DNA of 64,000 nucleotides, taken from the NCBI RefSeq assembly GCF_029626265.1, contig NZ_JARUBN010000001.1, forward strand, positions 4,030,001-4,094,000, written 5' to 3'. The number at the start of each line of letters is the position of its first letter. Positions within the stretch are counted from its first letter, which is position 1. The position numbers and the translations under genes were made by a program. The notes under the pieces are model-generated. The model saw only the letters and a program-made list of their open reading frames with translations. It had not been told where the DNA came from and made no database searches. This DNA comes from Micromonospora sp. WMMD1102. Lineage in GTDB: Bacteria > Actinomycetota > Actinomycetes > Mycobacteriales > Micromonosporaceae. Below are positions 1-9,838 of this stretch, in pieces.

Positions 1-1863
1 GTGCCGGACGGCTGCGAATGCCCGGCGGGCGTGCACCACGACCACGACAACGCGGTGCGGGCACACGCCGCCGCCCTCGACGTCGAGCCGGGCGACCTGC
101 TGGCGGCGACCATAGCCGGTGCCCTGCCGGGCCAGTGGACGGCGGCGGCAACGGCCTGGACGAAGACGCTCCGGTCGGCGTCGTTCTGGCGGCACCTGCA
201 CCACCGGGTGGGACAGCTCGACGACCGGCAGCTCGACGACTCCGCCGTGGACGCGCTGCGCGCGGAACTGCCGGTGACGCTGGTGCGTCCACTGTTGCGG
301 CTGGCGGCGTCCGCGGCCTATCCCGCTCCGCTGCGCAAGCACCTGGCCGAGTGGCCGGTGCCGGCCCGGGAACGCGACCGGCTGCTCGAAGAGGCGGCCG
401 AGCCGCTCTACACGGAACTGGAGTCCACCGTGCGCGACCTGCACGGCCGGCTGGACTCCGGTGACCCGGACGAGGTCGTGACCGAGATGCGGGCACGGGT
501 GAATCCGCTGCTGGCCCGGCTGGAGGGGTTGACGCCGCGCGACCAGCACCGCCGCACGGAGGCCGCCCGCGACAAGGTCGCCGTGCTCCTCAACAACTGC
601 GCACTCGCCCGGAACCGGTCGACCGGGCAGTACGAGGACAAGGTCAAGAACTGGCTGACGGAGGCGGCAAAGCTCGCCACCGATCCGGAGACCCGGCGCC
701 GGGTCCGGGAGAACCTCCGGGGCTTCGACGAGGCGGACAAGGCACTCGACCAGTTCCGGCGCACGGTCGACGAGATCCGGCGGACCCGGGGGCGGTACGA
801 GGCCGCGAGTTTCCTGCGGGGCATCCTCTCCGAGGTCACCGACGAGGCGCTCGCGGCGGCCATCCGGGAGATGCTTGCCGACCTGGATGCCGGCGCACCG
901 ATCTCGTACCGCACGCCCAGCCGTCCGTCCGGATTCCGCGCGCCGATCCGGCTGCACGAGTGGGAGAAGCAGGAGGCGCGGCGGCGGGGTCGGGCGGTGG
1001 GGGTCGTCGTCCTATGTGCGATCGTCCTGGTGGGGCTGGTCTGGTTCATGAACGCCGCGATCGACGGGGAGGAGACGGTCGACATCCATCCGGCCGCCTA
1101 CGGCAACGTCTCGTCGGAGATCGTCTGCGTCCGGGACAAGGACGACTGGCGCGACGGCGACACGACGGTGACCACCGTGTCCTGCGGGCAGGAGCACGCC
1201 GCCGAGGTGATCGCCTATCTGGGGTTGCGGGAGGCGAACCTCTCCTGGCCCACCGCGGACTACGACTACCTGGCCGGCCTCGCCCGGTTCAGCTGCGGCG
1301 AGCAGGCGAACAACTTCGGCCTCTCGGCGGGTAGCCAGTACGCCACCGAGGTCATCCTGCCTGACCGGGACGTCATCCACCGGTCGGACTCGCCGTCCAA
1401 CTACGCGACGTGCCTGGTGATGCGTACCGACGTGGAGCGTTGGTCGTTCCTCGCCGCCTCCCGGCAGACCGGGGCCCAACTTCCCGTGCAACGGCCGATG
1501 ACGTCCCAGAAGGGCCGGGATCACAACGCGCCGGTCGGCTACTGCGTGCGGGGCAGACAGGAGCCCGACCGTGCGGAGAACGTGTGGCCGATCGTGCGCT
1601 GCGACGAGCCGCACTGGGCCGAGATACTCGGCTACGAGATCCTGCGGTGGCCGCCGCCCGACGGCGCGACGCTCCGGCCGCAGCTCGTCGAGGAGGCGAA
1701 CCGCACCTGCCAGAAGCTGGCGACCGAACTACAGGTGCCGGACACGTTCTCGGTCCTGCCGGTCATCAGCGAATGGTGGACCGAGCAGAGCCAGGAGCGG
1801 ATGTACGCGGCCTGCGTGGCACATCGCAAGGACCACCAGTCCTTCTACGGGCGAGTCCGGTAG
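1..1863 (+). CDS. Membrane protein with septum-formation-like ectodomain; 5' end may lie outside the window
   Basis: Open from base 1, so the GTG at 1 may be the start or an internal codon. The roughly 330 N-terminal residues are charged, helical and cytoplasmic in character, with W-x-FW segments near residues 50-65 like those that follow J-domains in some Hsp40-like proteins (inference). One transmembrane helix spans about residues 333-352. The extracellular part has paired cysteines and two CxxxH/CDEPH segments followed by A-E-[VI]-[IL]-x-Y (near residues 189 nt-codons after the helix and again near 525-545), the pattern of septum-formation domains. The next gene starts 32 nt downstream and the following five genes are coupled, so it is probably the membrane sensor or anchor of that operon. 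Function otherwise unknown. Confidence 0.75.
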   Translation: MPDGCECPAGVHHDHDNAVRAHAAALDVEPGDLLAATIAGALPGQWTAAATAWTKTLRSASFWRHLHHRVGQLDDRQLDDSAVDALRAELPVTLVRPLLRLAASAAYPAPLRKHLAEWPVPARERDRLLEEAAEPLYTELESTVRDLHGRLDSGDPDEVVTEMRARVNPLLARLEGLTPRDQHRRTEAARDKVAVLLNNCALARNRSTGQYEDKVKNWLTEAAKLATDPETRRRVRENLRGFDEADKALDQFRRTVDEIRRTRGRYEAASFLRGILSEVTDEALAAAIREMLADLDAGAPISYRTPSRPSGFRAPIRLHEWEKQEARRRGRAVGVVVLCAIVLVGLVWFMNAAIDGEETVDIHPAAYGNVSSEIVCVRDKDDWRDGDTTVTTVSCGQEHAAEVIAYLGLREANLSWPTADYDYLAGLARFSCGEQANNFGLSAGSQYATEVILPDRDVIHRSDSPSNYATCLVMRTDVERWSFLAASRQTGAQLPVQRPMTSQKGRDHNAPVGYCVRGRQEPDRAENVWPIVRCDEPHWAEILGYEILRWPPPDGATLRPQLVEEANRTCQKLATELQVPDTFSVLPVISEWWTEQSQERMYAACVAHRKDHQSFYGRVR

Positions 1864-1895
1864 TCCGGCCGATGGTGCCAACCAGGGAGTCGACA

Positions 1896-2678
1896 GTGGC
1901 TGAGGAAACGCGGACGAGCGGAGCCGTGACGTTGCGGATCACGTCGCCCGAGGGGACGGTCCGGGGCGTCGAGCTGACGGACGGGCCGGTCACGGTCGGG
2001 CGGAGCGCGCCGGACCACGCACCACAGGTGGCGCTGGAGCCGGACCCGCAGCGCTGGATCGGCCGCCTGCACTGCACGCTGGATCTGCACGACGGCGGCT
2101 GGACGGTGACCGACAACGCGAGCGTCAACGGCACGCTGTTGCGCTGTCTGGACGGGCGCACCGAGCGTCTGGTGGGCAGCCGCCGGCTGCGGCACGGCGA
2201 AGCGCTGCTGATCCTCGGCGACATGTCCCCGGACGGCGAGCCGCTGTACTGGGAGCTGACCCTGCTCGACCCGCACACCACCCAGGCCGCGCCGTTCGAG
2301 CCGCCGCCGGCCGTTCCGGTTCGCGGGCCGTGCCTGCGGTACGACTGGGTGGCCGCGCGGGCGTACCGCAGCGACGAGGACGGAGAGACCCCGGTCGGCG
2401 GGCTGCGGCCGCAGGGCCACCAGCTGCTGCGGTACATGGTGGGCCGGAGCAGCGCCGGTGCCGCCGTCGCGTGCGGTCACGAGGAACTCGTGACCGCGCT
2501 CTGGGGCCCGCGTGAGGAGTGGCCGCCGGGCCGGGCCTACAACCGGGCCGACCTGGCCGGCGTCGTGCGGGCGGTGCGTCGCGCCATCGAGGTGGACCCG
2601 TCCGCGCCACGGATCCTGGAGACCATCACCGGCATCGGCTACCGGCTCAACGTCGCGGACTCCGGGGACGAGTCGTGA
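1896..2678 (+). CDS. FHA domain fused to winged-helix (OmpR-type) DNA-binding domain
   Basis: 260 aa from GTG 1896, which has GGGAG six bases upstream; an in-frame ATG at 1872 has no clear ribosome site. Residues about 15-115 form an FHA domain: VGRS, then GRLHCTL in place of the usual S-R-x-H, then DNASVNGT, the phosphothreonine-binding loop pattern. Residues about 160-255 resemble the OmpR/PhoB trans_reg_C winged helix, ending GIGYRL. There is no receiver domain. EmbR-type regulators carry the winged helix first and FHA last, so this order is reversed. The stop overlaps the kinase start by four bases (GTGA). I infer a DNA-binding protein that docks phosphorylated partners, probably substrates of the neighbouring kinase. 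Confidence 0.85.
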   Translation: MAEETRTSGAVTLRITSPEGTVRGVELTDGPVTVGRSAPDHAPQVALEPDPQRWIGRLHCTLDLHDGGWTVTDNASVNGTLLRCLDGRTERLVGSRRLRHGEALLILGDMSPDGEPLYWELTLLDPHTTQAAPFEPPPAVPVRGPCLRYDWVAARAYRSDEDGETPVGGLRPQGHQLLRYMVGRSSAGAAVACGHEELVTALWGPREEWPPGRAYNRADLAGVVRAVRRAIEVDPSAPRILETITGIGYRLNVADSGDES

Positions 2679-3718
2679 GCATGCTGGCCAGTGGCGACCG
2701 CGTCACCGAGACCCTCGTGGTGGACCGGCTGCTCGGCGAGGGCGCCTTCGCCGAGGTGCACCGGGTGCGGCACGAGTATCTCGGCTGGCAGGCCATGAAG
2801 GTCTTCAAACAGGTCGTCTCGCTCGACGAGACACGCACCCTGCTGGAGGAGGCCCGCCTGCTGTCCACGCTCGGGCACCCGAACATCGTGCGGGTCTTCG
2901 ACGCCGGTACGGTGCGCACCTCGAACGGCGTCCGTGGCTTCTTCACCATGGAGTACGTGGCCGGGGGCAGCCTCGAACGGCTGATCCGGGCGCACGCACC
3001 GGCGATGCCGGTGGAGCTGGCGGTCGAGGCGGCCGAGCAGATCGCTGCCGGCCTGACCGTCGCGCACGAGCAGGATCCGCCGATCCTGCACCGCGACCTC
3101 ACCCTGGCGAACATCCTCGTCGGGTACGACGGCAGCGGCCTGCGGGTCCGGGTCAGCGACTTCGGGCTCGCCAAGCGCGCCGACCCGTTCACGATGCTGG
3201 CCAGCGCCCAGGGCACGTTCGCCTTCATGGCCCCCGAGGTGCTGCGCCGCGAGGGATACTCACGGGCCAGCGACGTGTGGTCGGTGGGGACGATCGGCTA
3301 CCTGCTGCTGACCGGCCGGCTGCCCTACGACGACGGTGCACCGCTGTCGTCGTACTCGCCGGGTCGGTTCGCGCGGGCGCCGCTGCCACCGAGCCGGTAC
3401 CACCCGGAGGTGGACCCGGAACTGGACCGGATCATCCTGTCCGCGTTGCAGGTCGATCCGGCCGACCGGCCCGCCTCGGCGGGCGTGCTGGCCGCCGAAC
3501 TGCGCGACCGGCGGCTCGGCGGCGCCGCCAGCGGCCGGGGCGGACCACCCGACGCGCGGGCCCGCCGGCTCGCCACGGAGGCGCTGGCGCTGGCCCGGCA
3601 GGCCGGCCAGCTCGACCGTGCGGCGGAGCTGATGGCGGAGGCACTGGAGCTGGCACCGGACCTGCGCGCCCGCTATCAGCCCAGGTTGGCCCTGTGGCGA
3701 CGAGGAGTGACGATGTGA
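2675..3718 (+). CDS. Serine/threonine protein kinase (soluble, catalytic domain only)
   Basis: 347 aa from GTG 2675, chosen because it overlaps the upstream stop as GTGA and lies behind GGGGACGAG. The kinase domain fills residues about 10-270: glycine loop GEGAFAEV (21-28), ATP lysine K42, HRD at 139-141 with N146, DFG at 162-164, and MAPE. The catalytic-loop lysine normal in Ser/Thr kinases (HRDLKPxN) is replaced: the loop reads HRDLTLAN. There is no transmembrane segment or PASTA domain; the last 60 residues are TPR-like helices. Its place between an FHA protein and a GrpE/Hsp70 pair suggests that it phosphorylates operon partners. Activity is likely but not certain given the altered loop. 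Confidence 0.93.
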   Translation: MSMLASGDRVTETLVVDRLLGEGAFAEVHRVRHEYLGWQAMKVFKQVVSLDETRTLLEEARLLSTLGHPNIVRVFDAGTVRTSNGVRGFFTMEYVAGGSLERLIRAHAPAMPVELAVEAAEQIAAGLTVAHEQDPPILHRDLTLANILVGYDGSGLRVRVSDFGLAKRADPFTMLASAQGTFAFMAPEVLRREGYSRASDVWSVGTIGYLLLTGRLPYDDGAPLSSYSPGRFARAPLPPSRYHPEVDPELDRIILSALQVDPADRPASAGVLAAELRDRRLGGAASGRGGPPDARARRLATEALALARQAGQLDRAAELMAEALELAPDLRARYQPRLALWRRGVTM

Positions 3719-4293
3719 GACGGATCAGCTTACTGCGCGAGGAGCTTCGCCAGCGCCGGCACCACCGCGAGTTCCGGATCGCCCCTGCGGTCTGGGACGA
3801 CGAACAACAGGCCCGCCTGGCGGAGTTGCTGACGGCGGTGCGGGACGCCGAGCCCGCCGAGCTGGAGACGCCCGCCGAGCCCGCGGAGCCCGCCGAGCAG
3901 GAGACGCCGGCCGCGCGGGAGACGCCGGCCGCGCAGCCGGACGAGGCGGCGCTCGCGACGGCGGTCACGAACCTGTGGCGGGCCCAGCGGAAGCTCAGCT
4001 CGGCGGGTGAGCGGCCCTCACCCCGGGACCGCCAGGCCAGCCGGTACCTGCGTACGTCCACCGAGGCGCTGGCGGGCGCCGGCCTGGTCGTCCAGGAACA
4101 CGACGGCGACGCCTTCGACCCGGGACGGGAACTCGAGGTCCTGGTCTACCAGGAGAACCCCAACCTGACCGCCGAGGTCGTCATCGAGACCGTACGGCCC
4201 TCGGTCTACCTGCACGGCCGCCTCGTCCAGATGGGACAGGTCATCGTCGGCACCCCGGCGCAGCCCGTTGACGGAAGGAACGACCATGCGTGA
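3715..4293 (+). CDS. GrpE-like nucleotide exchange factor, short divergent form
   Basis: 192 aa from GTG 3715, overlapping the kinase stop and preceded by GAGGAG seven bases upstream. Residues 1-40 are basic and helical, residues about 45-80 are a Pro/Glu/Ala-rich linker of repeated ETPA and AEPAE units, and the last 70 residues (LEVLVYQENPNLTAEVVIETVRP region) resemble the beta-wing of GrpE. The long GrpE coiled coil is reduced. It overlaps the Hsp70 start by eight bases, the arrangement expected of a cognate exchange factor. The GrpE assignment rests on weak similarity plus context; a dedicated adaptor of unknown fold is the alternative. Confidence 0.6.
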   Translation: MRRISLLREELRQRRHHREFRIAPAVWDDEQQARLAELLTAVRDAEPAELETPAEPAEPAEQETPAARETPAAQPDEAALATAVTNLWRAQRKLSSAGERPSPRDRQASRYLRTSTEALAGAGLVVQEHDGDAFDPGRELEVLVYQENPNLTAEVVIETVRPSVYLHGRLVQMGQVIVGTPAQPVDGRNDHA

Positions 4294-6772
4294 CACCATC
4301 GACTTCGGCATCGACCTCGGCACCACCAACAGCGCGATCGCGGTGGTGGAGGAGGACGGCGGCGCCGCCATCATCAAGAACAACGACGGCTGGGACATCA
4401 CCCCCTCGGCGGTGTGGATCCCGAAGCCCGGTGTCGTGCACGTCGGGCGGCGGGCCCGCGAGCGCGTGCAGAGCGACCCGGACAACGCGGTCGCCGAGTT
4501 CAAGCTGGAGATGGGGCTGGCGGACGTCAGCAAGCGGTTCGCGAGGGCCGGCACCACGCTGACGCCGCCGCAGCTCTCCGCCGAGGTGCTCAAGTCGCTC
4601 CGGGCGGACGCCGCGCACCACAGTGGCAGTCCACCGGAGGCGGCGGTGATCACCGTACCGGCCGCCTTCTCGCTGAACCAGAACAAGGCGACCCTGGAGG
4701 CCGCCGTCCGGGCCGGGCTCAGCGCCGCGTGCCCGCTCGTCCAGGAACCCACCGCGGCGGCCTTCGCGTACGGCTTCCACGACGCCGACGACCGGGCGTA
4801 CTGGATGGTGTTCGACTTCGGCGGCGGCACCTTCGACGCGGCCGTGGTGAGCAAACGCGACGGCGACCTGCGGGTGCTGAACCACGCCGGCGACCCGTAC
4901 CTGGGTGGCAAGCTGATCGACTGGGCGGTGGTGGAGCGGATCCTGGCCCCCGCCGCCGCGTCCGCGTTCGACCTCGCCGACTTCCGTCGGGACAACCCGG
5001 CATGGCGGCTGAACTTCGCCAAGCTGAAGTGGCTCGCCGAGGAAGGCAAGATCCAACTTTCCCGCCGGAACGCTATCGACCTGATGGTGGAGCTGACGCT
5101 CGGCGACGGTGAGGTCGAGACGTTCGAGTACACGCTCCGGCGGGACGAGCTGGACAGGGTCGCCGAGCCGTTCTACGCGCGGGCGGTCAACCTGTGCCGG
5201 ACGGCCCTCGCCGACGGCGGACTGAGCGCGGGTGACATCGACCGGCTGCTGCTCGTCGGCGGCGCCACCCTGGCCCCCGGGCTGCGGGAGCGGCTCGCCG
5301 ACAGCCGGGACGGTCTCGGCATCGCCCTCGACACCAGTCTCGACCCGACGACGGTGGTCGCCCGCGGTGCCGCGATCTTCGCCAGCACCGTCCGGCGCCC
5401 GGATCCGCCGTCGTTCGAACCGGTCGCCGGCGAGTACGCCCTGCAACTCGCCTACGAGCCGAGCGTCACCACCACCACGCCGGTGGTCGCGGGCAAACTG
5501 CACGCCGCCGCACCGGTGGACTGGACCGGGTACGGCGTGACGCTGAGCAACCCGGACGGGCAGCCGCCGTTCCGCACCGGCCGGGTGGCGCTGAACGCCG
5601 AGGGCGCCTTCCTCACCGAGGTCTCCGTCGATCCGCACCGGACGTCGCGGTTCACCGTGGAACTCACCGACGCCTCCGGTGCGCCGCAGCAGGTGTCACC
5701 CGATTCGCTGTCCATCACGCACCGCGATGTCGAGTTCGGGGGCGCCCGACTGACCCACTCGCTCGGCATCCAGCTCGTCGACCGCGCGTTCGCACCGCTG
5801 CTCCGCAAGGGCGCGACGCTGCCGACCCGGGCACGCGAGGTGTTCCGCACCGCCGCGGCGCTGCGCCGCTCCGACGCCGATGCCGTGCTCCGCATCCCGG
5901 TGGTGCAGGGCGAGCGGGACCGCGCCGACCGCAACCGCCTGGTCGGCATGCTGGAGATCCGCCCGCTCGACGTACGGATCGACCTGCCGGCCGGGACCGA
6001 GGTCGAGGTGACGTTCGAGGTGGACGCCTCCAACCTCGTCACGGTCGTCGCCGACGTGCCGCTGATCCAGGCCCAGTTCGAGGCGGAGATCAACCTCGAC
6101 GAGGTCCGCACGCCGCAGCCGGACGAGCTGGCGGCCGCGCTCGCCGAGGCCGAGCGGCGGATGGCCGCACTGCACGAGTCGCGTGCGTCGGAGGCGCCCG
6201 AGGTGCGGGACCGGCTACAGCGACTCGACGACGAGGGCACCCTGACCACCGCCCGGGAGCAGGTCCGGGCCGCCGCCGTGGACGCCGGCGCGGCCGCCAC
6301 CGCCGAGGACCGGCTGCGCGAGGTGCAGGCGCAGCTCGACGACATCGAGGAGGCGGCCGACCAACCGGCGCTGGTCCGGGAACTGCGCGACCTGCTCGCC
6401 GAGGCCGGTCGGCTGGTCTCCGAGGTGGGCCATCCCGCCGACCGGACGGCGCTCGCCGAACTCGGGCAGCGCGCCGACGAGGCGATCGCGAGCGGCAGTT
6501 CGGCGCGGATCAAGGCGGAGACCGAGCGGGTCACCGAGTTCCTGATCGAGCTGGAGCGGCGCCAGCCCGGCTGGTCGGTACGGGTGTTCTACGCGCTGTG
6601 CGAGCAGCAGGGCCGGATGCAGCCTGCCGGCGAGGCCCGGACGCTCGTCCGGGAGGGCAAGGAGGCCCTGGCCGCCGGTGACGAACGCGCACTCGACGCG
6701 GTCAACTACCGGCTCTTCCGGCTGCTGCCGCGCGAGGAGCAGCCGAAGATCATCGGGCTGGTCGGCCGGTGA
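4286..6772 (+). CDS. Hsp70-family (DnaK-like) ATPase with long divergent C-terminus
   Basis: 828 aa from ATG 4286, with GGAAGGA six bases upstream. The ATPase domain covers residues about 1-375: phosphate loop GIDLGTTNS (8-16), an EPTAAAFAYG segment, FDFGGGTFD and LLVGGATLAP. Beyond residue 380 it departs from housekeeping DnaK: a beta-rich region in the substrate-binding position, then about 200 residues of Glu/Arg/Ala-rich coiled-coil helix. Housekeeping DnaK is near 620 aa and sits with grpE-dnaJ-hspR, so this is a specialised paralogue. Its start overlaps the GrpE-like gene and its stop overlaps the OmpA-like gene (GTGA). Likely role: an ATP-dependent remodelling switch in this signalling operon. 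Confidence 0.92.
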   Translation: MRDTIDFGIDLGTTNSAIAVVEEDGGAAIIKNNDGWDITPSAVWIPKPGVVHVGRRARERVQSDPDNAVAEFKLEMGLADVSKRFARAGTTLTPPQLSAEVLKSLRADAAHHSGSPPEAAVITVPAAFSLNQNKATLEAAVRAGLSAACPLVQEPTAAAFAYGFHDADDRAYWMVFDFGGGTFDAAVVSKRDGDLRVLNHAGDPYLGGKLIDWAVVERILAPAAASAFDLADFRRDNPAWRLNFAKLKWLAEEGKIQLSRRNAIDLMVELTLGDGEVETFEYTLRRDELDRVAEPFYARAVNLCRTALADGGLSAGDIDRLLLVGGATLAPGLRERLADSRDGLGIALDTSLDPTTVVARGAAIFASTVRRPDPPSFEPVAGEYALQLAYEPSVTTTTPVVAGKLHAAAPVDWTGYGVTLSNPDGQPPFRTGRVALNAEGAFLTEVSVDPHRTSRFTVELTDASGAPQQVSPDSLSITHRDVEFGGARLTHSLGIQLVDRAFAPLLRKGATLPTRAREVFRTAAALRRSDADAVLRIPVVQGERDRADRNRLVGMLEIRPLDVRIDLPAGTEVEVTFEVDASNLVTVVADVPLIQAQFEAEINLDEVRTPQPDELAAALAEAERRMAALHESRASEAPEVRDRLQRLDDEGTLTTAREQVRAAAVDAGAAATAEDRLREVQAQLDDIEEAADQPALVRELRDLLAEAGRLVSEVGHPADRTALAELGQRADEAIASGSSARIKAETERVTEFLIELERRQPGWSVRVFYALCEQQGRMQPAGEARTLVREGKEALAAGDERALDAVNYRLFRLLPREEQPKIIGLVGR

Positions 6773-7689
6773 CCGCGCCGGCCCTGGGTACCGACCTGGC
6801 GGTGAGTCGGGCGACCGCCGCCGCCCGGCGTGGCGACCTGGACGAGGCGGCCCGGGTCCTCGTCGCGCTCGACGGCGCGGAGCCGGCCGTCCTCGACCTG
6901 CTCGCCCGGATCCGCGCCCAACAGGGTCGCTGGCGGGAGGCGGACGAGTGCTGGGCGACGGTCCAGGCGACCGAACCGGACCACGAGGGCGCCGCCGCGG
7001 GGAGGCGGGCGATCGCCGCCATCCTCGCCGGTGACCGGCGCGCACACCCGCTCGCCTCACCGGTACGCCTCGCCGCGGCCGGGGCGGGGCTGGTGGTGGT
7101 GCTCGCCGCCGGGACCGTACTCGTGGTTCCGTCGTGGTCGCCCTCGCCGCCCGCGAAGCCCGCCGCCTCCGTGTCCACCACGGCGCCGGACACCGCCGCT
7201 CTGGACGCCGAGCGCCGCCGCGCGGCGGAGCTGGAGAGCCGGCTCGAAAAATTGGAGGTGGACCGGGTGGCGGCCGCGCAGGCGCTGGACGCCCGGCTCG
7301 ACGCCATCGCCCGCGCCGTGACCCTGCCCGGCGTGCTCGTGAGACGCCGGCCGGGCGCGGTGGAGGTCTACTTCCGGAAGGGCCTGTTCAGCCAGGACGC
7401 CTGGCTGACCGCGAACGGCGCCGACGTGCTCGCCGACGTCGGACGCCGGCTGCCCGACCTCGACGTGGCCGTCACCGTGGTCGGGCACAGCGTGCCGGTG
7501 CCGGGCGGCCCCACCAGCGGCGGCTCGAACACCGCGCTGACCCGGGCCCGGGTCGCGGCCCGGAAGCTGGCCCAGGCGGGCGATTTGCCGCTGACCGCCT
7601 TCACCCTGCGCTCCGCCGACCAGTCCCAGGGCCCGTTCCGCGAACCGGCCCGCAACCGCACCGCCAGCCTCGTCCTCACCCCCTCGTGA
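6769..7689 (+). CDS. TPR/transmembrane/OmpA-like protein
   Basis: 306 aa from GTG 6769, overlapping the Hsp70 stop by four bases. Residues 1-85 contain a TPR-like pair of helices (ARRGDLDEAARVL; GRWREADECW). A single membrane helix lies near residues 100-122, then a Pro/Ser/Thr linker, a short coiled coil (residues 142-180) and an OmpA-like C-terminal domain (residues about 190-306) with ALTRARVAARKL in the place of the peptidoglycan-binding N-x-x-L-S-x-x-R-A helix. The topology puts TPR inside and OmpA-like outside, so it could tether the chaperone/kinase module to the cell wall. Diaminopimelate-binding residues were not verified. Confidence 0.8.
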   Translation: MTAPALGTDLAVSRATAAARRGDLDEAARVLVALDGAEPAVLDLLARIRAQQGRWREADECWATVQATEPDHEGAAAGRRAIAAILAGDRRAHPLASPVRLAAAGAGLVVVLAAGTVLVVPSWSPSPPAKPAASVSTTAPDTAALDAERRRAAELESRLEKLEVDRVAAAQALDARLDAIARAVTLPGVLVRRRPGAVEVYFRKGLFSQDAWLTANGADVLADVGRRLPDLDVAVTVVGHSVPVPGGPTSGGSNTALTRARVAARKLAQAGDLPLTAFTLRSADQSQGPFREPARNRTASLVLTPS

Positions 7690-7868
7690 CCACAGATGTA
7701 CGGAGTCCGCCCCGACCGGTAGGAGACTCGGCCGCGCCCTGCCGACGACCCTCGCCGGCACACCTGTCCGGAGACCGACGGAGTGCTTGTCCATAGCAGC
7801 GCTGTTGCCCATCCTGTGCCGGTGACCAGGGGTACTCGGCGACGTCACCTGACGTGGCGGGAAGACGG

Positions 7869-9236
7869 ATGAGTGCCGACGGAGGCAGCCGGCGCAGACG
7901 TTGGCCACCGGCGCTGCTGATCGGGGTACTTGTCGCCGCCCTGCTGATCGGCGTGGCGGCTGTGCTGATCGCCCGCGCCGTACCGGACTACCGGACCGCG
8001 TTCCTGGTGGACGCGTCGTCGCCCAGGGACGGGACGGACTTCACCGCCACCGTCGACGCCGTGCGTGCGGCGGCGCAGAACTCGGGCGACCGCGACTCGC
8101 TCTCGCTGCGCCGCTTCGGCGGCGAGTGCGACGACAGCAACAGCACCTCGGCCGTCGTGGACGCCGGCATCGGGCACGCTCAGCAGGTCAGCAGCGCGGC
8201 GCGCGGGTTGACCGCAGCCGGCAAACCCACCCTGCACCGGGGCCTTGCCGCCGCCGTCGAGGACTTCGCCGGCCGCTACCCCTTCCGGGCCAGCAAGCGG
8301 AACCGGATCGTCGTCGTGACCACCCACGGCGCCGACGCCTGCGACAAGGACCGGGACGCCCTTCGGCAGCAGGTTCGGGACCGGGCCGAGGAACTCGGCG
8401 TGCGGCTCGACTTCCGCTTCGTCGGCTACAAGCTGCCGCCGGGCGAACAGCAACAGCTGGCCGAGGTGGCCAGCACGGTGGCCGCGGAGCGACCCCGGTT
8501 CGTCAGCACGCCGAAGGAGTTGGACTCCACCCTGGTCGAACTCACCATCCCCGAGAACACGGACGTCGAGACGATCCGGACCGGCTCGCCCGGCCCTGCC
8601 CCGCCGGCCGACACTCCCGCACCGGTCCACACCGTACGGCTCGCCGCGCAGAGACTGACCCTGTCGGTCCCGCTCGAATGGAAGGCGTACGTCGAGAAGC
8701 CGCAGGATCTCTCCTGGCTGACCGACTCGAAGGGGAAGACGATCGGCCGCGAACGTGGCCGGGGCGGATCAGACAAGATCAGAACGCCCGGGGAGTGCCG
8801 GGACAAGGAGCGTGCCGACAATCCCAGGGACTTTTGGTGTCCAGGGATCGAATTACGCTACGGCGTGCTGAGCATGGCCGTGAATGCCGAGCAGTTCGGC
8901 GTGCGCCCGCTGAGGCTCGACGACAGTCTCGCCGGAAACCACGGGCAGGGACTGTGTCCGGAGAATCCGAACCTCGCCGCCGTGGGAGTCGGTCGTGGGG
9001 CAACCCTGCTGGCGGGTGGCACGAAACCTGTCGGCGACCGCACAGCCGAGTATCGGGAGTGGCGGGTCCCCTGTTTCAAATACGATCCCCAACATGGCCC
9101 CAAGGAACTCCGAGGTCCGGCGGGGGTGTCGTACGTGGAGCGGTACTGGTATCTCCGGAAGGAGCAGGTGCTGATCGTGGACAACTGGCAGACACCTGAC
9201 CTGGACCGGATCCTGGAGCAGGCCACCTGGAAGTAA
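7869..9236 (+). CDS. Membrane-anchored VWA-like protein
   Basis: 455 aa from ATG 7869, preceded by GGGAAG; an in-frame GTG at 7854 is less well placed. A short basic N-terminus leads to a membrane helix (about residues 13-36), then a von Willebrand A-like domain (about 40-215) with VDASSP at the first MIDAS strand and a later THGAD. The MIDAS DxSxS and D-G motifs are degenerate, so metal binding is doubtful. The C-terminal 200 residues are a cysteine-containing extracellular domain I do not recognise. It lies 180 bp after the kinase/Hsp70 operon in the same direction and may act with it; a separate promoter is likely. Confidence 0.7.
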   Translation: MSADGGSRRRRWPPALLIGVLVAALLIGVAAVLIARAVPDYRTAFLVDASSPRDGTDFTATVDAVRAAAQNSGDRDSLSLRRFGGECDDSNSTSAVVDAGIGHAQQVSSAARGLTAAGKPTLHRGLAAAVEDFAGRYPFRASKRNRIVVVTTHGADACDKDRDALRQQVRDRAEELGVRLDFRFVGYKLPPGEQQQLAEVASTVAAERPRFVSTPKELDSTLVELTIPENTDVETIRTGSPGPAPPADTPAPVHTVRLAAQRLTLSVPLEWKAYVEKPQDLSWLTDSKGKTIGRERGRGGSDKIRTPGECRDKERADNPRDFWCPGIELRYGVLSMAVNAEQFGVRPLRLDDSLAGNHGQGLCPENPNLAAVGVGRGATLLAGGTKPVGDRTAEYREWRVPCFKYDPQHGPKELRGPAGVSYVERYWYLRKEQVLIVDNWQTPDLDRILEQATWK

Positions 9237-9286: not shown

Positions 9287-9838
9287 ATGGCGCGGTACAC
9301 GAAGCCCGAGCTCAGGGAGCAGATCAAGGCGGAGATCCAGGCTTCCGACAAGGGCGGCAGACCGGGACAGTGGTCGGCACGCAAGTCGCAGCTGCTCACC
9401 CAGGAGTACAAACGACGCGGCGGGGGCTTCCTGGGCCCGAAGGACGAGCGGCAGAAGTCGTTGCAGCGGTGGGGTGCCGAGGACTGGCAGACCAAGAAGG
9501 GGGACACCCGGGCACGCGGCAGGGGTGAAACAGGTCGCTACCTGCCCAAGCGCGCCTGGGAGCAGCTCTCCGAGAAGCAGCGGCGCGAGACCGACGCGAA
9601 GAAGCGCAAGGAGTCGAAGACCGGCAGGCAGTTCGTCGGCAACACCGAACCGGCCAAACGGGCCCGGAAGACCGCCTCGGCGACCGGTCAGATCGCGGAG
9701 TTGCCGGTCACCGAGGCGACCAAGCTGGTGCGTACGCTCGACACCGGCCAGTTGCGGACGGCGCTGCAACGTGAACGGGCGGGCAAGGCCCGCAAGACGC
9801 TCATCCAGCGGATGCAGTCGGAACTGGAGCGACGCTGA
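9287..9838 (+). CDS. DUF5872-family basic protein
   Basis: 183 aa, very rich in Lys and Arg. The N-terminal 60 residues contain GRPGQWSARKSQLL and YKRRGGGFLGPKDERQKSL, the hallmark of the DUF5872 family. The middle part is a basic region without clear structure, and the C-terminal 40 residues form a predicted helix. The family has no established role; the charge suggests nucleic-acid association (inference). Weak ribosome site; the start is supported by the conserved N-terminus beginning at this ATG. It ends 84 bp before the convergent PucR gene, with a hairpin between. Confidence 0.8.
   Translation: MARYTKPELREQIKAEIQASDKGGRPGQWSARKSQLLTQEYKRRGGGFLGPKDERQKSLQRWGAEDWQTKKGDTRARGRGETGRYLPKRAWEQLSEKQRRETDAKKRKESKTGRQFVGNTEPAKRARKTASATGQIAELPVTEATKLVRTLDTGQLRTALQRERAGKARKTLIQRMQSELERR

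What the first reader, a model, noticed from the sequence alone, without database searches (positions are those of the whole stretch)
1..7689. Six-gene kinase, FHA, GrpE/Hsp70 and OmpA-like operon
Five junctions are overlapping or nearly so. The genes join a membrane protein with septum-formation-like ectodomains, a phosphopeptide-binding DNA-binding protein, a Ser/Thr kinase, a dedicated exchange factor and Hsp70, and a wall-facing OmpA-like protein. I know of no described pathway with this set. I infer an envelope stress or division-linked switch in which kinase signals control a chaperone and a transcription factor.
Basis: partly seen in the sequence, partly recalled or inferred. Interest (0 to 1): 0.85.

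Follow-up and report, generated by a model that had tools for sequence, protein, structure and literature searches.

The report
Mobile membrane-anchored Hsp70-kinase gene cassette
Filamentous soil bacteria carry, at unrelated places in their genomes, a conserved block of genes for a second Hsp70 chaperone set together with a protein kinase and proteins predicted to cross the membrane; it would likely act at the cell envelope, and because its predicted Hsp70 partner protein lacks the usual triggering motif, this Hsp70 would have to be driven in an unusual way.

Summary
The window cuts the first gene: its missing N-terminus is J-like, so the set is J-like membrane protein, GrpE-like protein and Hsp70, plus kinase, FHA/winged-helix protein and TPR-TM-OmpA-fold protein. 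In this genus a histidine kinase and response regulator precede it. In four Plantactinospora genomes the same 9.93-kb block ends within a few bases of the same points but has unrelated flanks. Across other actinomycetes J, GrpE and Hsp70 stay together (39 of 46 J loci), often with OmpA (29) or kinase (26). In 354 family genomes all 21 with this Hsp70 also have the J. The J-like protein lacks HPD, and the Hsp70 lacks the arginine and linker that HPD contacts (as do other divergent Hsp70-likes). The paper searches aimed at the set found no description; the nearest printed theme (GAP1-N2 with Hsp70/GrpE) is distinct by profile. Most likely reading: a membrane- and wall-tethered, transferable Hsp70 signalling machine. 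A septum or division role is unsupported; biochemical function is untested.

The parts
1..1863 (+). J-like membrane protein (first ~89 codons lie upstream of the window): HPD-less J-like domain, helical region, one predicted TM segment, Septum_form (PF13845) outer domain
   Evidence: full reading frame; Septum_form E 4e-8 to 2e-9, above cut-off; AF2 model of the P. mayteni homologue, pLDDT 90; profile match to DnaJ; one TM
1872..2678 (+). FHA domain plus OmpR-type winged helix (start ATG 1872 or GTG 1896)
   Evidence: FHA E 7.6e-7 above cut-off, Trans_reg_C E 1.1e-4 (22.6 bits, below cut-off 26.2); five members, Arg36, His59, Asn78-Gly79 invariant
2675..3718 (+). Ser/Thr protein kinase with a short TPR-like C-terminal tail
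   Evidence: Pkinase E 1e-42; Lys42, HRD (Asp141), Asn146, DFG (162-164) invariant in 10 of 10
3715..4293 (+). GrpE-like nucleotide exchange factor (predicted)
   Evidence: Pfam GrpE matched in 8 of 14 members at E 0.1, best E 6.5e-4; hhalign 93% to canonical GrpE over the C-terminal domain
4286..6772 (+). [quoted passage not shown]
   Evidence: E 3e-79; NBD 7-368, SBD from 492; insert present in 9 of 9 aligned
6769..7689 (+). TPR - TM - OmpA-fold protein (predicted to link cytoplasm and wall)
1..7692 (+). In-window part of the 9.93-kb block shared by four Plantactinospora genomes (whole block G000:C1:4027758-4037692); ends 3 nt after the OmpA-like stop

Best explanation
The six genes belong to a conserved actinomycete cassette that encodes a second Hsp70, a GrpE-like protein and a J-like protein with a predicted membrane anchor, together with a Ser/Thr kinase, an FHA/winged-helix protein and a TPR-OmpA-fold protein, and that likely works as a membrane- and wall-tethered Hsp70 switch which reports on the cell envelope. 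Shown by calls: gene set, order, co-occurrence, the shared block with unrelated flanks, absence of HPD in the J-like protein and of the Arg/linker partners in the Hsp70. Inferred: the J-like protein docks the Hsp70 at the inner membrane face by its basic helix II and carries a replaceable outer sensor domain; the OmpA-fold protein ties the complex to the wall and offers TPRs inside; the GrpE-like protein resets the Hsp70; because the HPD trigger is absent, ATP turnover would be gated by another contact, most simply by the inserted Hsp70 domain or by phosphorylation by the kinase; the FHA protein would bind the phosphorylated product and regulate transcription. Not known: client and target genes.
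For: Same genus: HK-RR-J-FHA-PK-GrpE-Hsp70-OmpA in 4 of 4 cassette-bearing genomes, own included. Wider: of 47 loci examined 46 held J; J+GrpE+Hsp70 in 39 of 46, those plus OmpA 29, plus kinase 26, all five 25, all six 9. Family screen, own genome included: this Hsp70 in 21 of 354 genomes, J in 25 of 354, all 21 within the 25. Unit that changes place: one shared block, unrelated flanks, and the left flank of the window's copy present without a cassette at a site in two other genomes. J homology: the J profile's three non-own hits in 296 phylum genomes (E 3e-4 to 7e-4) are all canonical DnaJ proteins with HPD; hhalign 72.5% to DnaJ versus 0.2% for a control. Kinase catalytic residues intact in 10 of 10. 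TM segments in 42 of 48 J frames and 27 of 31 OmpA frames, fragments counted. The genome has its own canonical DnaK-GrpE-DnaJ set, so this is a second one.
Against: No expression, binding or activity data. J homology is remote: no Pfam DnaJ hit among 16 members at E 1 and no PDB match at E 0.001. Arg167 and linker are missing from most other divergent Hsp70-like proteins scored too, so their loss is not special to this family. Kinase was not found in 13 of the 39 J-GrpE-Hsp70 loci, and FHA was found in only 12 of 46 J loci, so the signalling parts are optional. The OmpA-fold protein lacks the aspartate that I recall as binding diaminopimelate, so wall binding is uncertain. Presence is patchy (25 of 354 family genomes), so the function is dispensable for the group.
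Confidence: 0.5

Rival explanations
1. A conflict (immune-type) system: the Hsp70 set senses or thresholds an invader-induced envelope change, and kinase plus FHA protein set off a response, as proposed in print for other chaperone-based systems of multicellular bacteria.
For: Patchy presence and change of site; the closest PADLOC match of the kinase is mad6, E 5.6e-62; printed theme of Hsp70/GrpE in GAP1-N2 systems and of OmpA/FHA in others (PMC7159879, passages).
Against: No effector domain recognised in the cassette genes scanned; the other cassette proteins have no PADLOC match apart from helix-turn-helix hits of the response regulator; GAP1-N2 not found in this genome.
Confidence: 0.2
2. 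A membrane motor for export or assembly of envelope proteins, built like the mitochondrial import motor with an HPD-less J-like subunit (Pam16 type), Hsp70 and GrpE.
For: HPD-less J-like membrane protein with Hsp70 and GrpE-like protein as the most conserved core; doubled J-like paralogues in three loci, L034, L047, L051.
Against: No translocon or client gene recognised in the cassette; in the loci with two J-like genes neither has HPD, unlike the Pam16/Pam18 pair (recalled; abstracts in a search listing).
Confidence: 0.12
3. An ordinary spare chaperone operon in which kinase, FHA and OmpA-like genes are accidental neighbours.
For: Some loci have J-GrpE-Hsp70 only (for example L108, L113, L120).
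Against: Five-gene set kept in 25 of 46 loci across families; eight-gene block at four sites; overlapping or abutting genes in most loci by nearest-start gene calls.
Confidence: 0.08

Closest known systems
GAP1-N2 GTPase-centred systems with Hsp70, GrpE and DnaJ-fused FNIII protein (Kaur et al. 2020, PMC7159879; passages seen)
   Same: Actinobacterial operons with an Hsp70, GrpE and a J- or TPR-fused FNIII protein; other systems in the same paper have kinases, FHA or OmpA domains
   Different: GAP1-N2 not found in this genome. In 13 fetched GAP1-N2 loci none has this J, GrpE-like or OmpA family at E 1e-3, and their Hsp70s score 104-220 bits against 873-1400 for the cassette Hsp70s printed
HscC with tail-anchored DjlB/DjlC (review PMC8215388; passages seen)
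   Same: Second Hsp70 with its own membrane-anchored J proteins encoded nearby; sporadic distribution
   Different: HscC lacks the GrpE signature; here a GrpE-like gene is part of the core, the J-like protein lacks HPD, and kinase, FHA and OmpA-fold proteins are often added
Canonical DnaK-GrpE-DnaJ
   Same: Same three roles by sequence or profile
   Different: No HPD, no DnaK linker motif, Pro in place of the HPD-contacting Arg, ~120-residue insert
Mitochondrial PAM motor (Pam16/Pam18, mtHsp70, Mge1) (recalled; abstracts in a search listing)
   Same: Membrane-tethered J-like protein without HPD, Hsp70, GrpE
   Different: No HPD-bearing J partner and no translocon in the cassette

Membership tests
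HSP70 (Pfam PF00012) | Profile match above curated cut-off | tested here: met
   267 bits against 20.6, E 3e-79
DnaK-type Hsp70 | Conserved VLLLDV-type linker and Arg167 | tested here: not met
   Linker absent and Pro at the Arg167 position in 36 of 36 family Hsp70s that the pattern scored; 3 further Hsp70 loci (L109, L113, L115) did not fit the pattern and were not scored; own DnaK has both
J-domain protein | J fold/profile | tested here: inconclusive
   hhalign 72.5% and 60% to DnaJ; four-helix layout in model; no Pfam DnaJ hit, no PDB fold match at E 0.001
J-domain protein | HPD motif in the helix II-III loop | tested here: not met
   0 of 46 N-termini; the one HPD string, in L115, lies after helix IV
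GrpE (PF01025) | Match above curated cut-off | tested here: not met
   18.2 bits against 25.8 for the window protein; 8 of 14 members match at E 0.1
GrpE (PF01025) | Profile similarity to canonical GrpE | tested here: met
   hhalign 93% over the C-terminal domain; control 1.1%
OmpA C-terminal-like domain | Fold | tested here: met
OmpA C-terminal-like domain | Diaminopimelate-binding Asp (role recalled) | tested here: not met
   Absent in 13 of 13 aligned members, Arg kept
GAP1-N2 conflict system | GAP1-N2 protein in the operon or genome | tested here: not met
   No match in own genome; 13 of 101 genomes searched have one
Type VI secretion (TagH/TssL) | FHA and OmpA models above cut-off | tested here: not met
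   19.2 of 120.25 bits and 16.4 of 139.8 bits
MADS / BREX-2 defence | Partner genes beside the kinase | tested here: not met
   Among nine locus proteins only the kinase and the response regulator (helix-turn-helix part) match PADLOC
Ser/Thr kinase, active | Lys, HRD, DFG intact | tested here: met
   10 of 10 aligned kinases; activity itself not testable here
One transcript | Co-transcription of all genes | not testable with these tools
   Needs RNA data

The most novel reading that the evidence does not exclude
A new class of Hsp70 machine: a transferable, wall- and membrane-tethered chaperone switch in which HPD-driven ATP hydrolysis has been replaced on both partners by a private coupling (inserted Hsp70 domain and a kinase), so that envelope state or an invader seen by an exchangeable outer domain is read out as phospho-dependent transcription.
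Probability: 0.28. Interest if true: 0.92.

Novelty: new variant of a known kind. Interest (0 to 1): 0.7.

Why it matters
If the reading holds, bacteria own a complete Hsp70 set that does without the HPD contact, whose replacement abolished J-domain stimulation in every system tested according to a review (PMC8215388, passage), and that is wired to a kinase and a DNA-binding protein and handed on as a unit. It would make two questions testable in soil bacteria: how an Hsp70 can be gated without the canonical J trigger, and what chaperone-based sensing at the envelope does in multicellular actinomycetes. It also suggests that a set of proteins named 'septum formation family protein' (72 of 103 J relatives listed carry that domain) are better viewed as J-like anchors of an Hsp70 than as division proteins.

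Tried and rejected
Division link: rests on a Pfam name; PF13845 occurs in no paper text held, 'septum formation family protein' in one listed paper, a Nocardia case report, not opened. Type VI secretion and MADS/BREX: only single-domain similarity. GAP1-N2 conflict system: not found in this genome; of 13 GAP1-N2 loci of relatives 10 carry Hsp70s and 5 a canonical-type GrpE match, none the cassette's J, GrpE-like or OmpA families. Arg167/linker loss as proof of co-evolution: weakened by the control: other divergent Hsp70-likes that could be scored lack the linker and mostly the Arg (one, in L230, has Arg). CxC...H..HD pattern after the J-like helices as a universal metal site: present in near relatives, missing in distant ones. 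Downstream VWA and DUF5872 genes as cassette members: rejected, outside the shared block; VWA relatives occur in 2 of 7 genus genomes, own included, and outside this place only as 39-49% paralogues. Clean empty site: not found; in the two genomes with the left flank but no cassette there, the window's right flank does not follow (no window match in L186 or L187). Fold search with the J model: no PDB match at E 0.001, VIA rows are mainly helical repeats, no conclusion. One search was read in a wrong frame and ignored; one search ran before its loci existed and printed nothing; L012 was fetched and not used.

Limits: genome searches with the J alignment scored only 5-7 candidates per genome, with the Hsp70 2 per genome; counts are lower bounds. 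TM calls are a simple hydropathy scan. Paper searches cover open PMC text only; all ten.

Full report
What is there. The window is G000:C1:4030001-4094000 of an 8.9-Mb genome; its closest named cassette relatives are Plantactinospora mayteni and P. endophytica, whose contigs correspond by length to same-genus genomes. Six genes run in one direction from base 1 to 7689, with four overlaps of 4 or 8 nt and one short gap. Pfam: Septum_form, FHA with a sub-threshold winged helix, protein kinase, sub-threshold GrpE, Hsp70, sub-threshold TPR. The first gene is cut by the window edge. Its full frame adds an N-terminus that reads like a J-domain without HPD. Upstream lie a NarL-type histidine kinase and a LuxR-type response regulator.

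The J-like protein. A profile of 16 members run over 296 phylum genomes gave three hits besides the own gene, at E 3e-4 to 7e-4; all three are canonical DnaJ proteins with HPD. Profile-profile comparison with a DnaJ alignment gave 72.5% for the J region and 60% for the longer alignment, against 0.2% for an OmpA control. The AlphaFold model of the P. mayteni homologue (pLDDT 90) has helices at 23-27, 35-50, 64-75 and 78-86, the J-domain layout, then a helical array. Against it: no Pfam DnaJ hit among 16 members, no PDB match at E 0.001, and VIA matched mainly the helical array. HPD is absent from the expected loop in 46 of 46 N-termini. A TM segment is predicted in 42 of 48 frames, fragments included. 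The outer part varies: Septum_form in 72 of 103 protein relatives listed (that search favours proteins of similar length), a short tail in others. One relative is named 'DnaJ-like protein' by a source.

The Hsp70. It matches solved DnaK structures over residues 7-368 and 492-642. The 120 residues between have no Pfam match above cut-off (Big_9 E 0.07) and are present in 9 of 9 aligned members. The position of DnaK Arg167 is Pro in 36 of 36 scored members and the VLLLDV-type linker is absent in all 36, while the genome's own DnaK has both. According to the passages I saw, the HPD aspartate bonds to R167 and the HPD histidine to linker L391 (PMC8215388), and R167 can pair with linker D393 (PMC7289447). 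So both sides of the trigger contact are missing. Other divergent Hsp70-like proteins that could be scored lack the linker and mostly the Arg too, so this is consistent with, not proof of, a private coupling.

Other parts. Kinase: catalytic residues intact in 10 of 10. FHA protein: phosphopeptide-type residues conserved in 5 of 5 (roles recalled). GrpE-like: hhalign 93% to canonical GrpE, control 1.1%. OmpA-like: hhalign 90%; model pLDDT 81 with TPR, a low-confidence stretch (90-137) that holds the predicted TM, and an OmpA-type domain that matches peptidoglycan-binding domains of PA0833, PomB, YfiB and MotB; the aspartate of the usual motif is missing in 13 of 13.

Conservation. Screens, own genome included, found the J protein in 11 of 61 relatives, 12 of 394 class genomes and 25 of 354 family genomes; one collection scan gave 15 named loci, one of them a fragment. 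The flanks of these hits were fetched and scanned. Of 47 loci, 46 hold J; 39 have J+GrpE+Hsp70, 29 of these also OmpA, 26 also kinase, 25 both, 9 all six; FHA was found in 12 of 46. The two-component pair was seen only in Plantactinospora among the loci searched for it. The reverse screen with the Hsp70 found 21 of 354 genomes, all 21 among the 25 with J. The other four J hits are weak or partial (G558, G600, G030) or a lone divergent J-like gene without Hsp70 (G032).

A unit that changes place. In four Plantactinospora genomes blastn aligns one block of about 9.93 kb (87-89% identity), in the window's copy from a hairpin at G000:C1:4027758 to three bases past the OmpA-like stop, with ends that agree to about 15 bases between pairs and no further match of 150 bp or more in the fetched flanks. 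The hairpin of this genome folds at -29.3 kcal/mol, z -3.7 (another copy z -1.9). The left flank of the window's copy is found without a cassette in two other genomes, one of which has its cassette on another contig; the right flank does not follow there, so a clean empty site was not shown. Actinoplanes L046 and L104 share the cassette and otherwise only a 316-bp stretch at a different distance; L105 shares no flank with either; L107 shares none with L110 or L111, while L110 and L111 share one side. The two Micromonospora loci and an unnamed class pair (L125, L126) sit at one site, and the two Kribbella loci share much flank. None of the eight genes matches an integrase or transposase in Pfam.

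Relation to known systems. Kaur et al. 2020 (PMC7159879, passages) describe GAP1-N2 GTPase systems of which about 14% carry Hsp70 and GrpE with an FNIII protein typically fused to DnaJ or TPR. GAP1-N2 was not found in this genome and was found in 13 of 101 genomes searched. In those 13 loci, Hsp70s score 104-220 bits with the cassette profile, against 873-1400 for the cassette Hsp70s printed, and no cassette J, GrpE-like or OmpA protein was found. HscC with tail-anchored DjlB/DjlC (PMC8215388, passages) is the nearest working analogue but is said not to interact with GrpE. The paper searches aimed at this gene set gave no description of it beyond that 2020 paper's related themes.

How it likely works. 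I commit to a membrane- and wall-tethered Hsp70 switch: the J-like protein brings the Hsp70 to the membrane and looks outward, the OmpA-fold protein ties it to the wall, the GrpE-like protein resets it, the kinase modifies a member and the FHA protein carries the signal to DNA. Only the anatomy, the conservation and the change of site are shown; every step of action is inferred.

Noticed in passing
L052:9962-10937 (Kribbella capetownensis): A likely cassette remnant: FHA gene, a J N-terminal piece and an OmpA-like gene, with no GrpE or Hsp70 match in the fetched stretch.
   Followed up: no
L034, L047, L051: Two J-like paralogues beside one Hsp70, in tandem or across a convergent junction, none with HPD.
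   Followed up: partly
window 7854-9236: VWA-like membrane protein next to the cassette but outside the shared block; paralogues lie in pairs at C1:5617111-5618897 and in one other genome of the genus.
   Followed up: partly
window 9287-9838: DUF5872 protein (E 1.8e-7), function unknown.
   Followed up: no
G000:C1:4027758: Hairpin with a perfect stem of 12 bp or more at the left end of the shared block; its core is kept in the other three copies.
   Followed up: partly
L011:9627-9733: Gap between response regulator and J-like gene holds a stretch (TTCCAACTGTCT) identical in four Plantactinospora genomes: possible promoter or operator.
   Followed up: no
G000:C1, seven places: Besides DnaK and the cassette Hsp70 the genome has seven further Hsp70-like loci; the five that could be tested lack the DnaK linker.
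   Followed up: partly
L222-L231: GAP1-N2 loci of the family carry one or two Hsp70s and in five cases a GrpE match, in line with the printed theme.
   Followed up: partly
L038 J-like protein, residues 96-107: CxC...H..HD pattern in near relatives of the J-like protein, a possible metal site, missing in distant ones.
   Followed up: partly
window 2675-3718: The kinase's best defence-model match is mad6 (E 5.6e-62), so cassette and defence kinases may share an origin.
   Followed up: no
L011:2151-2756 (G000:C1:4022151-4022756): DDE-type transposase piece (DDE_3) about 5 kb upstream of the shared block.
   Followed up: no
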